Shown: in pieces, positions 31,362 to 62,976 of the stretch
How the letters are laid out: the number at the start of each line of letters is the position of its first letter
How positions within the stretch are numbered: the first letter of the stretch is position 1
Assembly: GCA_031316115.1 (NCBI GenBank)
Contig: JALDRC010000001.1
Coordinates: forward strand, 248,001 to 312,000
Origin: Nitrososphaeraceae archaeon
GTDB lineage: Archaea > Thermoproteota > Nitrososphaeria > Nitrososphaerales > Nitrososphaeraceae
DNA: 64,000 nt
Direction: 5' to 3'
Made by a program: the position numbers and the translations under genes
Notes under the pieces: model-generated
What the model saw: the letters and a program-made list of their open reading frames with translations, nothing else
Database searches by the model: none
What the model was told of the DNA's origin: nothing

Positions 31362-31368
31362 GGTTCTG

Positions 31369-31695
31369 ATTATATGAAAATATTTAGGTATCTTTCCTTG
31401 TTTGTTTGTCTACAGGCTAGGTTCCACATTAACATACATCATAAAGGAGTTAGGCGCTGACTGTATCGATATCAGAGGTGATAATATACCATCTCATTAA
31501 GAAGGTTATTAGATGTTGCCTTCATTATATCAATTAAAAATTAAAACAAAAAAAGAAAGAAAAAATAAAACTTAATGGAAGAGAACATATTTAATATATG
31601 CTTTTTAAAGAATCTTTAATATTCTTAATTTTAATAGAAAATAACTATTAGCAGGAAAAAGGATTTTCTGGTACAAATAGAGATTTTAATAGATG
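31369..31695 (+). mobile_element. Transposase-less IS110 derivative (copy C), about 327 bp
   Basis: The segment is homologous to the left leader of the intact IS110 element at 60824-62260, then jumps directly to that element's right tail, with no transposase. Outside it is GGTTCTG (31362-31368), the start of an IS6 terminal repeat, and the rest of that repeat resumes after GATG at 31692-31695. A second copy of the same length lies at 54887-55212. Both appear joined at a shared GGAA, which suggests one ancestral deletion that later moved. Confidence 0.7.
31417..31540 (+). ncRNA. Candidate bridge-RNA-like leader (copy C)
   Basis: This stretch aligns by eye with the leader upstream of the intact IS110 transposase. 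It retains GGCTAGGTTC, a GGTTC-N4-TTAAC box (31420-31433), a hairpin-forming AGTTAG-GCG-CTGACT and AGATGTTGCC. The outer closing stem of the intact copy is not preserved. Expression is unknown. Confidence 0.45.
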
Positions 31696-32360
31696 CAGCT
31701 TTAAGTAAAAGATAAAGATATGTTTATTTTATTTATCATGACAAATAACAAAATAACATCCAACTATATTGTGATGTATTCTGTTTATCTATACTTTATT
31801 GGTAGGTTTAAAAAGTATATTCTAATCACAAGTTCCATCTAATGATATAAGTTGTGTTTTTATATGGAACTGGATTGAGAGTTAGATCTTTCAGATTTAG
31901 ATAAGGAAGAGAGTATTTGCATTTGTAATGGATAAAATGTCATGCAGGGAGGAAAATAGCATTGATGGTTATGATTTTGTATATAACCATTTTACAGTTC
32001 TGCGCGGGGATCGATATCACAGGTAGAAACAGGATTTTTGGAGAATTTATCAGATCTCATCTCAAGGTCTGAAATACATTCAATCTATACAAAGAATGGT
32101 ATATATGATATGGGGAAATATCTAGTTTAGGGGATTTAAAGACCATCATTATTCAATACTAGAAAGTTTGATAATTCAAAGTAATCATTATTTGAAACAC
32201 CGAATAGAAAGTTTTGCTAGTTAGAATCCCTGGATTAAAGAATTTCATAATCTATTGTACTAAAGTTGATATGATTCTTTGTTTGTATGTATAACAATAC
32301 AATATCGAATAATAACAAGCATTGGTGAATAATCATCAGTATAATCTGAAATTAAGAGTC
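31696..32360 (+). mobile_element. Heavily decayed IS6-family copy
   Basis: Nucleotide similarity to the better IS6 copies runs through the whole stretch (GTATTCTGTTTATCTATACT, then TATATGGAACTGGATTGAGA) to a right end, AAATTAAGAGTC. Many stops and indels are present. Its left terminal repeat is split by the IS110 derivative: the outer GGTTCTG is at 31362-31368. Confidence 0.6.
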
Positions 32361-54775: not shown

Positions 54776-54886
54776 GGCTCTTTTAACTTAAGGAAATTTT
54801 AAGATAAAAATAAAAAATCTATCAAAAATGAGCATAGAACATATTAGGAAAAGTAGATATTGAGAGAATTTTTACCTTTAAGTTAA
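54776..54886. mobile_element. Miniature IS6 remnant split by an IS110 derivative
   Basis: The left end GGCTCTTTTAACTTAAGG and right end CCTTTAAGTTAACA enclose only about 85 bp. The outer part of the right end, CAGAACC, is found at 55213-55219 on the far side of the inserted IS110 derivative. No coding sequence remains. Confidence 0.55.
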
Positions 54887-55212
54887 CATCTATTAAAATC
54901 TCGATCTGTATCAGGTCATCATTATGTTCCTATTAACAGTAATTTTCTATTATAATTAATAATATTAAGGGTTATCGAGAATAGCCTATGCTAGATATGT
55001 TATTTTCCTTTCATTTTTATTTTTTCATTCTTTTTTTCTTTTTTTATTTCGGCTTAGAGGCGGCAAACATCTATTCGCCTTCTTTATGAGGTAGCATTAT
55101 AGCCGCTCGGATATAGGTTCAGTCAGAGCCTGACTCTCTCACGTAGTATGTTAATTTTGAACCTAGCCTGCATACAAAAGGGAACGGTACCCAATAGAAT
55201 TTTTCATCTAGT
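54887..55212 (-). mobile_element. Transposase-less IS110 derivative (copy B), about 326 bp
   Basis: On the minus strand it starts right after GGTTCTG (55219-55213). It reproduces the IS110 leader, crosses to the right tail at GGAA, and ends GATG before TTAACTTAAAGG. Length and junction match copy C at 31369-31695. It lacks the transposase found in the complete copy at 60824-62260. Confidence 0.72.
55051..55170 (-). ncRNA. Candidate bridge-RNA-like leader (copy B)
   Basis: It is strongly similar to the leader of the intact IS110 (GGCTAGGTTCAAAATTAACA is identical). It has a perfect hairpin AGTCAG-GCT-CTGACT, an AGGTTCA/TGAACCT pairing, the GGTTC-N4-TTAAC box (55163-55150) and an outer GGCT/AGCC pairing. 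The loop between these parts differs from the intact copy. Confidence 0.5.
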
Positions 55213-55220
55213 CAGAACCG

Positions 55221-56225: not shown

Positions 56226-56752
56226 AAAAGATAGGAATAAAATGGAATTGGCAATCACTTGATAGTATCTCTATAAAATCACCTTTAGGGGGCGATGACA
56301 GGTCATAATCCTACAGTTAGGAGTAAATTAGGTAGCAAAAGACATATTCTGACAGATAAAGATGGTATTCCTCTTTCTACTTTTATAACATCTGCAAATA
56401 CTCATGATGTTACTGTTGCAACAAAGACAATGGATAATATCGTTCTCCAACGACCATCAACATCATCTACATCCAAATATAACCAGAATCTATGTCTTGA
56501 TAAAGCATATCAATCCAAAGAAGTAGAACAAGAAATCATCAAAAGAGGATACACTCCTCATATACGTCGCAGAAGAGAGAAAGACAACAAATTATTTTAT
56601 AAAAAGCATACTGCAAGAAGATGGGTAGTAGAGAGAACAAATTCATGGCATAACAGATTTAGGAAATTGTTTACAAGATATGAAAAGAAAGATGAGAACT
56701 ACTTGCTCTTGTAGAATTAGCAAATAGTGTTATTATTTATAGGGGGTTAATT
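56226..56752 (+). pseudogene. Truncated IS5-family (IS427-like) transposase
   Basis: WNWQSLDSISIKSPLGG is followed after a frameshift by TGHNPTVRSKLGSKRHILTD, then ITSANTHDVTVA, DKAYQSKEVEQEII, RRWVVERTNSWHNRFRKLFT and, after another frameshift, VELANSVIIYRGLILG. This is the standard second half of a DDE_Tnp_1 transposase. The N-terminal domain is missing. Confidence 0.75.
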
Positions 56753-60745: not shown

Positions 60746-60859
60746 CTTTTTTATTATCTGTTTTAAGATAGTAAAGTTAATCTGGCTAGTAAATTTATCA
60801 GTATAGTTATCTTTATGGCTCTGACGATATGAAAATCTTATAGTTTGTTTATTGTTGTA

Positions 60860-60984
60860 TGTTGGCTAGGTTCAAAATTAACATACTCCGTAAGAGAGTG
60901 AGGCTGTGACTGAACCATATCTTATGAAGTGGCTATCATACTACAATAGAGAGTGCATGGATGTTTGCCACCTGTTAGCCAACA
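60860..60984 (+). ncRNA. Candidate bridge RNA of the IS110 element
   Basis: TGTTGGCTA (60860-60868) is perfectly complementary to TAGCCAACA (60976-60984), enclosing 125 nt. Inside, GGTTCA pairs with TGAACC. GGTTC-N4-TTAAC (60869-60882) echoes the two halves of the insertion site GGTTCTG^TTAAC. IS110 elements such as IS621 express a bridge RNA from the leader that specifies donor and target. That this is such an RNA is inference. Confidence 0.6.
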
Positions 60985-61019
60985 AAACAAGAAAAAAAGA
61001 AGGTGAATAAAAAAGGAAA

Positions 61020-62090
61020 TTGAATCATCTTGGAATAGATGTTGGAAAGAGAAAATGCAGGGCAGCACTAAAAGACGATAAAGGAAAGATACTAGATGAA
61101 TTCTTCTTTGGTAACAATTCTGATGGAATATCCAATCTAATTAATAGGATATATTATCATGACACAAAAGAATGCAATGCGGTACTGGAATCTACAGGCA
61201 ACATGTGGATGAGAATACACTACACACTAGAAGATAATGGAATAGATACTATACTAGCAAATACATACAAGACAAAGATAATAGCACAAGCAAAGATAAA
61301 ATCAGATAAACTTGATGCACGTATTCTATCTGATCTACTGAGAACTGGATTGATATACGAGTCATATGTACCTGTAAAGGAATTTAGAGACAAAAGGAGT
61401 CTTGTTAGACATAGGATAGTATTATCTCGAACCAAGACAAAACTGGCAAACAAGATACACTCGATTTTAGACAAATATGAATACAGAACAGAACTGACTG
61501 ATATATTTGGAAAATCCGGAATTGAATGGTTGAAATCACTGTCTGTCTCACCAATAGACAGGATAATTCTGGATACGACGCTGACATCAATAGAATCTAT
61601 CGATAACCAAATACAAATAGTATCAAAAGAGATTGCAAGATATGCATGGCAGGACAACAAGGATGTAAAAATACTTCTCAGTATGACAGGAATTGACATA
61701 TTTTCTGCAATGTTGATATCAACAGAGATAGTTGATATTCACAGATTCTCTACACCATGGAAACTAGTCAGTTATGCAGGACTTGCACCTTCAACGCGAG
61801 AATCATCAGGAAAAATAAAAACAGGACAAATAACAAAACAAGGATCTCCCTTGTTGAGATGGATATTGGTACAGTGTGCATTATCTGCAATAAGACATGA
61901 CCATCATATGAGAACATTCTATGAAAGAATCAAACAGAGAAAGGGACACGGTAAAGCCATAGTAGCAACAGCAAAAGAGATGCTTGTCATAATATGGTAC
62001 ATGCTAACAAGACAACAATTGTATCGATTCAAGAACAGGACCAGATATGAGCAGAAACTACAACGACTGAAGAAGAGTGGATCTAAATAA
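61020..62090 (+). CDS. IS110-family transposase (RNA-guided DEDD recombinase)
   Basis: The 356-residue protein has an N-terminal RuvC-like DEDD domain (GIDVGKRKCRAALKDDKG; VLESTGNMW; KIKSDKLDARILSDLL). A coiled middle is followed by the C-terminal Transposase_20 domain (LLSMTGIDIFSAMLISTEI; SYAGLAPSTRESSG; ITKQGSPLLRWILVQCA), whose serine should attack DNA. The start is TTG. No stop or frameshift is seen, and it is the only intact transposase in the window. It could act in trans on the two short derivatives. Confidence 0.93.
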   Translation: MNHLGIDVGKRKCRAALKDDKGKILDEFFFGNNSDGISNLINRIYYHDTKECNAVLESTGNMWMRIHYTLEDNGIDTILANTYKTKIIAQAKIKSDKLDARILSDLLRTGLIYESYVPVKEFRDKRSLVRHRIVLSRTKTKLANKIHSILDKYEYRTELTDIFGKSGIEWLKSLSVSPIDRIILDTTLTSIESIDNQIQIVSKEIARYAWQDNKDVKILLSMTGIDIFSAMLISTEIVDIHRFSTPWKLVSYAGLAPSTRESSGKIKTGQITKQGSPLLRWILVQCALSAIRHDHHMRTFYERIKQRKGHGKAIVATAKEMLVIIWYMLTRQQLYRFKNRTRYEQKLQRLKKSGSK

Positions 62091-62260
62091 AGATAATTAG
62101 ATAATCAGACAATAAATAACAATACGATGACTTGGAGAACACGGAAGCCACATATAGCGAATGCTATTGTCTAAAATGCTTAATAGATAGAAAGACATAA
62201 CAAAACATGGCTAAACAGGATACAAAAGATAACCAGCATACATGTAGATTTTCATGGATG

Positions 62261-62976
62261 TTAATTTAAGATAATGTTTACCTCCTTTAATAAAAAATCA
62301 TTATTATTATTCACTATAGTATAATTATACATAGAAACAAAGAATTGTATCCAGCTATATACATGAAATAGATCACACTCTTCTTTGATACAAGGATAGT
62401 AATCATCAAAACTTTCTATTCTGTCTTTCAAAAACTGGTTTACTCTTTCCATCAAACTTTTCTCTATTGAAGAATGCAAATAGTGTTTTAATCCAATTAC
62501 ATTGCATGCTTAATCATACCATGTTCCACCATCTGTATAAATGGTATGTTTTCCATATTTTGATACAAGAGATCTGATGAATTTTTCAGCAACAAGCATA
62601 TTTCTCTCTTCAGAGAGATAGATTCCAAACACAGAACTGTACAAAGGTTCAATACAAACCCATAACCAGAAATGTTTCTGTCCTATCTGAATGATGGTTT
62701 CATCTATTATGAAATCAGTTACTATTTTTCTTTTGTAAATCTGACAGGATCCAAATCTTTGAATCCAATTTCAAACAGACACATGATTTCTTTTATCATC
62801 TCTGAATATTACTAATGCCTTAGATGTACTACGTAAACTCAATCCAAGAAAATACATATACAAAGAATACATTACAATAAAAGTAGAGGTTTTATTCCTT
62901 TCAAATTTAATTTTATTCATATCATATTTAGAATTTTCTTAGCTATATCTTTTACTGCTTATCTGAACAGAGGCCT
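62261..62976 (-). mobile_element. Decayed full-length IS6 copy with IS110 in its right end
   Basis: On the minus strand it starts GGCCTCTGTTCAGATAAGCA (62976) and runs through remnants such as SSIEKSLMERVNQFLKDRIE and SFDDYYPC to CTTAAATTAA at 62261. The last seven bases of its right terminus lie beyond the IS110 element at 60817-60823. Stops disrupt the transposase. Confidence 0.75.

What the first reader, a model, noticed from the sequence alone, without database searches (positions are those of the whole stretch)
60817..62270. IS110 element inserted precisely inside an IS6 terminal repeat
The seven bases GGCTCTG before the IS110 element and TTAATTTAAG after it together rebuild the right end of the IS6 copy at 62261-62976. 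The short derivatives at 31369 and 54887 split IS6 ends at the same position (GGTTCTG then TTAA or its decayed form). Three insertions at one point of a repeat family imply targeting, not chance. IS110 elements choose sites through a bridge RNA, so this family looks programmed for IS6 ends.
Basis: partly seen in the sequence, partly recalled or inferred. Interest (0 to 1): 0.88.

Follow-up and report, generated by a model that had tools for sequence, protein, structure and literature searches.

The report
RNA-guided jumping gene targets IS6 ends
In a soil-type archaeon, an RNA-guided mobile element and its gene-less 330-bp offspring insert at one fixed dinucleotide in the terminal repeats of a very abundant second mobile element (IS6), because the guide RNA encoded in each copy spells out that repeat; this is a new archaeal case of a behaviour known from a few bacterial elements.

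Summary
The IS110/IS1111-type element (window 60822-62258, 1437 bp) splits an IS6 terminal inverted repeat as GGCTC^TGTTAATTTAAG. The derivatives at 31367-31693 and 54889-55214 belong to a ~330-bp transposase-less family (MITEs), also placed in IS6-type repeats. GGYTC(TG) belongs to IS6: uninterrupted IS6 copies have 8-bp target duplications directly outside it, and one IS6+MITE composite has a perfect duplication, CTCGAAAC. In this genome all seven distinct insertions with both ends readable rebuild an IS6-like repeat (0-4 mismatches of 17; random rate 0.0002). The non-coding left end folds into a bridge RNA whose four guides match left target, right target and both donor ends; all four covary with their own flanks across 15-21 elements (permutation p about 5e-5), and the hairpins show compensatory changes. 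Guides in related genomes come in types (TTAACA, TTTACA, TGAACA) that match the IS6-repeat types found there. TIR targeting is known in bacteria (IS5075/IS4321, IS1383). New, as far as the held library shows: archaeal host, IS6 as target, an upstream RNA combined with IS1111-type guide order and ends, and MITEs carrying guides. Movement itself is inferred, not observed.

The parts
60822..62258 (+). IS110/IS1111-type element, full length 1437 bp (7-nt left extension TGACGAT, 3-nt right extension GGA outside the subterminal inverted repeats)
60817..60821 (+). GGCTC: outer end of the interrupted IS6 terminal inverted repeat (left target)
   Evidence: IS6 copies with 8-bp duplications directly outside this sequence; composite with intact duplication
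60829..60838 (+). left subterminal inverted repeat ATGAAAATCT
62246..62255 (+). right subterminal inverted repeat AGATTTTCAT
60861..60983 (+). predicted bridge (seeker) RNA: closing stem GTTGGCTA/TTAGCCAAC around a target-binding and a donor-binding hairpin
   Evidence: the two apical hairpins and the donor-loop stem have compensatory changes; the closing stem was read by eye only
60875..60883 (+). right-target guide AAATTAACA = reverse complement of TGTTAATTT (9/9 with own right flank)
60902..60908 (+). left-target guide GGCTGTG (own left flank GGCTCTG, one mismatch; GGCTGTG is a common IS6-end variant in this genome)
60934..60939 (+). right-donor guide TATCAT, complementary to the left end of the element
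   Evidence: only offset 3 of 9 gives signal
60956..60963 (+). left-donor guide CATGGATG, identical to the right end CATGGA plus core TG
61020..62090 (+). DEDD transposase, 356 aa, intact (TTG start)
   Evidence: PF01548 5.8e-23 and PF02371 1.6e-22; NF033542 1.3e-69
62259..62975 (-). remainder of the host IS6 copy (TGTTAATTTAAG... to the far end ...AACAGAGGCC), DDE_Tnp_IS240-type transposase remnant
31367..31693 (+). ~330-bp transposase-less derivative (MITE) with bridge-RNA region, left flank GGTTC, right flank TGCAGCTTTAAG
31694..32320 (+). decayed IS6 body directly right of the MITE
   Evidence: tblastn 28% over 209 aa, 4e-8
54889..55214 (-). second MITE of the same family, left flank GGTTC, right flank TGTTAACTTAAA
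54776..54888 (.). IS6-type miniature (~118 bp with the GGTTC beyond the MITE) whose right repeat the MITE splits
   Evidence: repeat GGCTCTTTTAACTTAAG at 54776-54792; same-sized repeat pairs in G232 and G191

Best explanation
An archaeal IS110/IS1111-superfamily element encodes a DEDD recombinase and, in its left end, a two-hairpin bridge RNA. One loop of the RNA carries AAATTAACA (complementary to the right half-target) and GGCTCTG (identical to the left half-target). Together they spell GGCTC-TG-TTAATTT, the terminal inverted repeat of the resident IS6 family. The other loop carries the element's own ends. The recombinase joins the circular element (core TG) to the core TG of an IS6 end, always with the RNA-bearing end towards the outside of IS6. 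Transposase-less 330-bp MITEs with the same kinds of end and their own guide RNA presumably use the enzyme in trans. Shown: anatomy, placement, guide-flank covariation, RNA hairpin covariation, and that IS6 was the host. Inferred: transcription of the RNA, circle formation, catalysis, and trans-mobilisation of the MITEs.
For: Placement: 7 of 7 distinct insertions in G000 with both ends rebuild an IS6-type repeat with 0-4 mismatches; an IS6 transposase body, or an IS6 miniature, lies directly right of the element and never directly left. IS6 owns GGYTCTG: 8-bp duplications directly outside it (7-8 of 8 matching in about half of the IS6 copies examined) and a perfect CTCGAAAC duplication around the composite at C14:192783. 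Host IS6 bodies are most similar to different uninterrupted IS6 copies, and left flanks are unrelated except the L039/L040 pair, so the insertions are independent. Both IS6 ends are used. Guides: left guide vs own left flank 68/75 matches (permuted mean 35.4); right guide vs own right flank, core excluded, 70/105 (42.5); p=5e-5 each; also with the four nearest copies removed (49/55 vs 23.1; 44/77 vs 25.7). Donor guides: right end 102/105 (73.0) and left end 91/126 (65.6), p=5e-5; only one of nine offsets gives signal. RNA: 93.5% of cells paired, 10 of 16 pairs with changes on both sides, 0 of 500 shuffles as high, collapse when slid by one column. Guide types TTAACA, TTTACA and TGAACA correspond to IS6-repeat types TGTTAA, TGTAAA and TGTTCA in the same group of genomes.
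Against: The window element's left guide (GGCTGTG) has one mismatch to its own flank. Right-guide matches are poor in the distant elements L149, L150 and L158 under the fixed alignment. Several decayed 5' fragments (L036, L041, L045-L048) lie at non-IS6 flanks. Three relatives' right flanks are cut by contig ends (L229, L225, L245), and L225's joined site fits poorly (6 mismatches). No expression, circle or transposition data. Permutation tests do not fully remove shared ancestry.
Confidence: 0.93

Rival explanations
1. GGYTCTG (and TTAA) are constant parts of the IS110 element, and the likeness to IS6 ends is a coincidence of boundary calling.
For: GGYTCTG precedes the left end in nearly all copies of the lineage and in several more distant elements.
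Against: Uninterrupted IS6 copies carry the full repeat with 8-bp duplications just outside; the composite keeps its duplication; more distant elements have other left flanks (GTTGT, AAAAC, GTAAC, TGTGT) that match their own guides.
Confidence: 0.02
2. One insertion happened once, and the copies spread because IS6 carried the embedded element along when it transposed.
For: The C14 composite has an IS6-type duplication on both sides, which transposition of the composite would also give; one pair, L039/L040, shares flank and IS6 body.
Against: Host IS6 bodies are most similar to different uninterrupted IS6 copies; both IS6 ends are occupied (inverse orientations); one host is an IS6 miniature; guide and repeat vary together between genomes. 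It would also leave the guide match unexplained.
Confidence: 0.04
3. IS6 activity (cointegrates, deletions, insertion next to IS110) placed the two elements side by side without any targeting by IS110.
For: IS6 is hugely abundant (146 repeat hits with at most 2 mismatches, against 4 for the control pattern), and this mechanism often makes junctions at IS6 ends.
Against: It would leave a whole repeat next to IS110; here the repeat is split at one dinucleotide with five bases on the far side, in a constant orientation, repeatedly.
Confidence: 0.01

Closest known systems
[quoted passage not shown]
   Same: DEDD element with subterminal inverted repeats that targets the terminal inverted repeat of another mobile element; described there as a safe harbour
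   Different: bacterial; target is Tn3-family repeats, not IS6; as IS1111-family members their non-coding region would be expected downstream of tnp (family rule in PMC11187229, not checked for these two)
IS1383 into the inverted repeats of IS1384 in Pseudomonas putida (Muller 2001; title seen in the reference list of PMC11208160)
   Same: IS110-superfamily element targeting the ends of another IS
   Different: different target IS; bacterial; guide RNA not examined here
IS621 bridge RNA (PMC11208160, PMC11208158)
   Same: RNA in the left end, two loops, four guides covering target and donor, shared core dinucleotide, DEDD recombinase
   Different: core TG instead of CT; guide order reversed (right-target guide first); 10-bp subterminal inverted repeats; recombinase only distantly similar (PDB 8wt6, E 8e-22 with a profile)
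ISEc11, ISKpn4, ISPa11 (IS1111 family seekRNA, PMC11187229)
   Same: subterminal inverted repeats with 7- and 3-bp extensions; top-strand complement precedes bottom-strand match in the RNA
   Different: their RNA lies downstream of the transposase gene; here it lies upstream, an arrangement that paper reports as exceptional (ISMtsp17)

Membership tests
IS110/IS1111 superfamily (DEDD transposase) | RuvC-like DEDD domain plus Transposase_20 domain | tested here: met
   PF01548 81.8 bits and PF02371 80.1 bits, above cut-offs; NF033542 235 bits vs cut-off 140; D7, E57, D96, D99 invariant
IS1111 family | subterminal inverted repeats (11-13 bp as a rule) with 7-bp left and 3-bp right extensions | tested here: met
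   10-bp perfect repeat in the window element, up to 13 bp in relatives; extensions 7 and 3
IS1111 family | target guide order: top-strand complement before bottom-strand match | tested here: met
   right-target guide at 60875 precedes left-target guide at 60902; rule from PMC11187229
IS1111 family | long non-coding region downstream of tnp | tested here: not met
   the guide RNA lies upstream; exceptions of this kind are reported in PMC11187229
IS110 family in the narrow sense | non-coding region upstream of tnp | tested here: met
IS110 family in the narrow sense | target guide order bottom-strand match first, no or short subterminal repeats | tested here: not met
Bridge-RNA system | two loops with guides for both halves of target and donor | tested here: met
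Bridge-RNA system | RNA expressed, bound by the recombinase and required for transposition | not testable with these tools
   needs RNA sequencing and biochemistry
IS6 family (target element) | DDE_Tnp_IS240-type transposase, terminal inverted repeats beginning GG, 8-bp duplication | tested here: met
   PF13610 1.1e-8, above cut-off; repeats and duplications
MITE | short, transposase-less, conserved ends shared with an autonomous relative, multiple copies | tested here: met
   eight copies of 316-332 bp with conserved ends (0.87 identity) in three genomes; a precise autonomous partner with the same left-end type was not found

The most novel reading that the evidence does not exclude
The MITEs are self-guided passengers: each carries a working bridge RNA that reprogrammes a recombinase supplied in trans, so guide and IS6-repeat variants co-evolve in these archaea and the IS110 lineage acts as a hyperparasite that disables IS6 copies by splitting their ends.
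Probability: 0.35. Interest if true: 0.72.

Novelty: new variant of a known kind. Interest (0 to 1): 0.52.

Why it matters
It extends RNA-guided targeting of transposon ends to archaea and to IS6, with many natural guide and target variants in one family of genomes, so guide-target rules can be read from nature. The guide RNA sits upstream of the gene but has IS1111-type order and ends, which bears on how the two groups are related. Small gene-less elements carrying their own guides suggest a minimal cargo format, and splitting of IS6 ends may curb IS6.

Tried and rejected
Viral contigs: no relative. Rfam: only a below-threshold miRNA hit inside the transposase gene, taken as chance. The idea that GGYTCTG is an IS110 part was rejected by IS6 duplications. 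The idea that the guides are in IS621 order was rejected; IS1111 order fits. IS6 repeats lacking exactly TG (GGCTC^TTAATTTAAG, three in the genome) were considered as excision footprints; two were looked at and have no matching duplications, and no mechanism predicts loss of the core, so this was left open. A search for other copies of the target of the second IS110 element (C12) found none with up to 3 mismatches. Papers on IS110 MITEs with guides: none found in the held library, which is not proof of absence.

Full report
What is there. The window lies at C1:248001-312000 of a 3.16-Mb archaeal draft genome whose closest named relative seen here is Nitrososphaerales archaeon TH1177, with Nitrosocosmicus in the same family. 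The element spans 60822-62258. Its single gene, 61020-62090, encodes an intact 356-aa DEDD transposase. It is the only intact copy in the genome; a 43% identical element lies at C12:153827. The ends carry the inverted repeat ATGAAAATCT/AGATTTTCAT set 7 nt from the left and 3 nt from the right end, the rule published for the IS1111 family (PMC11187229).

The flanks. GGCTC stands left and TGTTAATTTAAG right; joined they form GGCTCTGTTAATTTAAG, the terminal repeat of an IS6 family (Pfam DDE_Tnp_IS240). Repeat-like sites with up to two mismatches number 146 in the genome against 4 for the control pattern. To decide whose sequence GGYTCTG is, I examined 30 IS6 loci. In those with both ends readable, about half have 7 or 8 of 8 duplicated bases exactly outside GGYTCTG. 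At C14:192783 a 330-bp derivative sits inside the repeat, and the whole composite is bordered by CTCGAAAC on both sides. So GGYTC is the IS6 end, and the IS6 was hit from inside its repeat.

More cases. A search with the non-coding left end found about 17 clear copies or fragments in the genome. Seven distinct loci have both ends; each rebuilds an IS6-type 17-mer with 0-4 mismatches (random rate 2.2e-4). An IS6 transposase body stands directly right of the right end in all but one, decayed at 31694 and at C14:34104. The exception, at 54889-55214, lies in a ~118-bp IS6 miniature. No IS6 body stands directly left. Relatives in G197, G149, G104 and G232 show the same. Host IS6 bodies differ and left flanks are unrelated, apart from one near-duplicate pair, so the events are independent.

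The derivatives. Eight copies of 316-332 bp in three genomes align end to end. Ends are 0.87 identical, the two RNA loops 0.80 and 0.76, and the spacer between left end and RNA 0.57. They have no transposase gene. They are a MITE family that has kept the guide-RNA region.

The RNA and its guides. The left non-coding region aligns across Nitrososphaeria, Bathyarchaeota and other archaea. Three helices have compensatory changes (10 of 16 pairs, 93.5% of cells paired, 0 of 500 shuffles as high; sliding by one column destroys the signal). In the first loop the 5' strand is complementary to the right flank and the 3' strand is identical to the left flank. For the window element these are AAATTAACA (9 of 9) and GGCTGTG (one mismatch to its flank, but equal to a common IS6-end variant here). 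Relatives with other flanks have other guides, for example GTTGT/TGTTCGCTC in a Bathyarchaeota element, matching 5 of 5 and 9 of 9. Over 15 elements the left guide matches its own flank 68/75 (permuted 35.4) and the right guide 70/105 (42.5), p=5e-5. In the second loop the 3' strand equals the element's right end (102/105 vs 73.0) and the 5' strand is complementary to its left end (91/126 vs 65.6), again p=5e-5, at one offset only. These are the four guides of a bridge RNA (PMC11208160), in the order reported for IS1111 elements (PMC11187229), but the RNA is upstream of the gene as in IS110 elements.

Co-variation with IS6 ends. In this group of genomes IS6 repeats begin TGTTAA, TGTAAA or TGTTCA, and the guides found there are TTAACA, TTTACA or TGAACA. 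The element in G197 (L138) lies at TGTAAAGTTAAG with guide TTTACA; the one in G232 (L245) lies at TGTTAACTT with guide AAGTTAACA; the window element lies at TGTTAATTT with AAATTAACA.

How it most likely works. The element circularises, the RNA pairs with the circle junction (core TG) and with an IS6 end (core TG), and the recombinase exchanges strands there. The orientation is fixed because the repeat is asymmetric around TG. This chain is inferred from IS621 and ISEc11; placement and pairing are shown here, chemistry is not. A likely benefit is an abundant and harmless landing site, as argued for IS5075 (PMC8269217); a likely cost to IS6 is a split end. Both are inference.

Known and new. Elements of this superfamily that target ends of other mobile elements are known: IS5075/IS4321 in Tn21-type repeats, IS1383 in IS1384 repeats; ISEc21 targets IS3-family transposase genes. 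So the kind is known. The archaeal IS6-targeting lineage, the mix of upstream RNA with IS1111-type order and ends, and the guide-bearing MITEs appear undescribed in the held library.

Limits. No experiments; draft genomes cut several right flanks; relatedness is only partly controlled in the permutations; the autonomous partner of the MITE left-end type was not found; decayed 5' fragments at other flanks are not explained. The closing stem of the RNA was read by eye and not scored.

Noticed in passing
L002 (G000:C12:153827) and L148 (G232): A second IS110-type lineage (43% identical) also lies within about 50-200 bp of a DDE_Tnp_1 (IS5/IS4-like) transposase, and its guides match its own flanks; whether it targets that element's end is open.
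   Followed up: partly
window 54776-54888; G232:C162:3517-3635; G191:C396:4398-4516: IS6-type repeats in inverted pairs about 118 bp apart, which look like IS6-derived miniature elements.
   Followed up: partly
G000 C1:70641, C12:280300, C19:83940: Three IS6 ends lack exactly the core dinucleotide TG (GGCTC^TTAATTTAAG); possibly an IS6 variant, possibly a trace of failed excision.
   Followed up: partly
L036, L041, L045-L048: Decayed 5' fragments of related elements at flanks that are not IS6 ends; right ends missing.
   Followed up: partly
window 60829-60862: The left subterminal repeat is followed by a TATA-like stretch (CTTATAGT) about 25 nt before the predicted RNA start, also present as CTTTATT in the MITEs; a possible archaeal promoter inside the element end.
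   Followed up: no
whole genome: Very high IS6 load (47 places listed with over 300 first-look candidates in 3.16 Mb), with several repeat variants.
   Followed up: partly
window 56290-56480: By eye, an IS5-like DDE transposase fragment; not tested.
   Followed up: no
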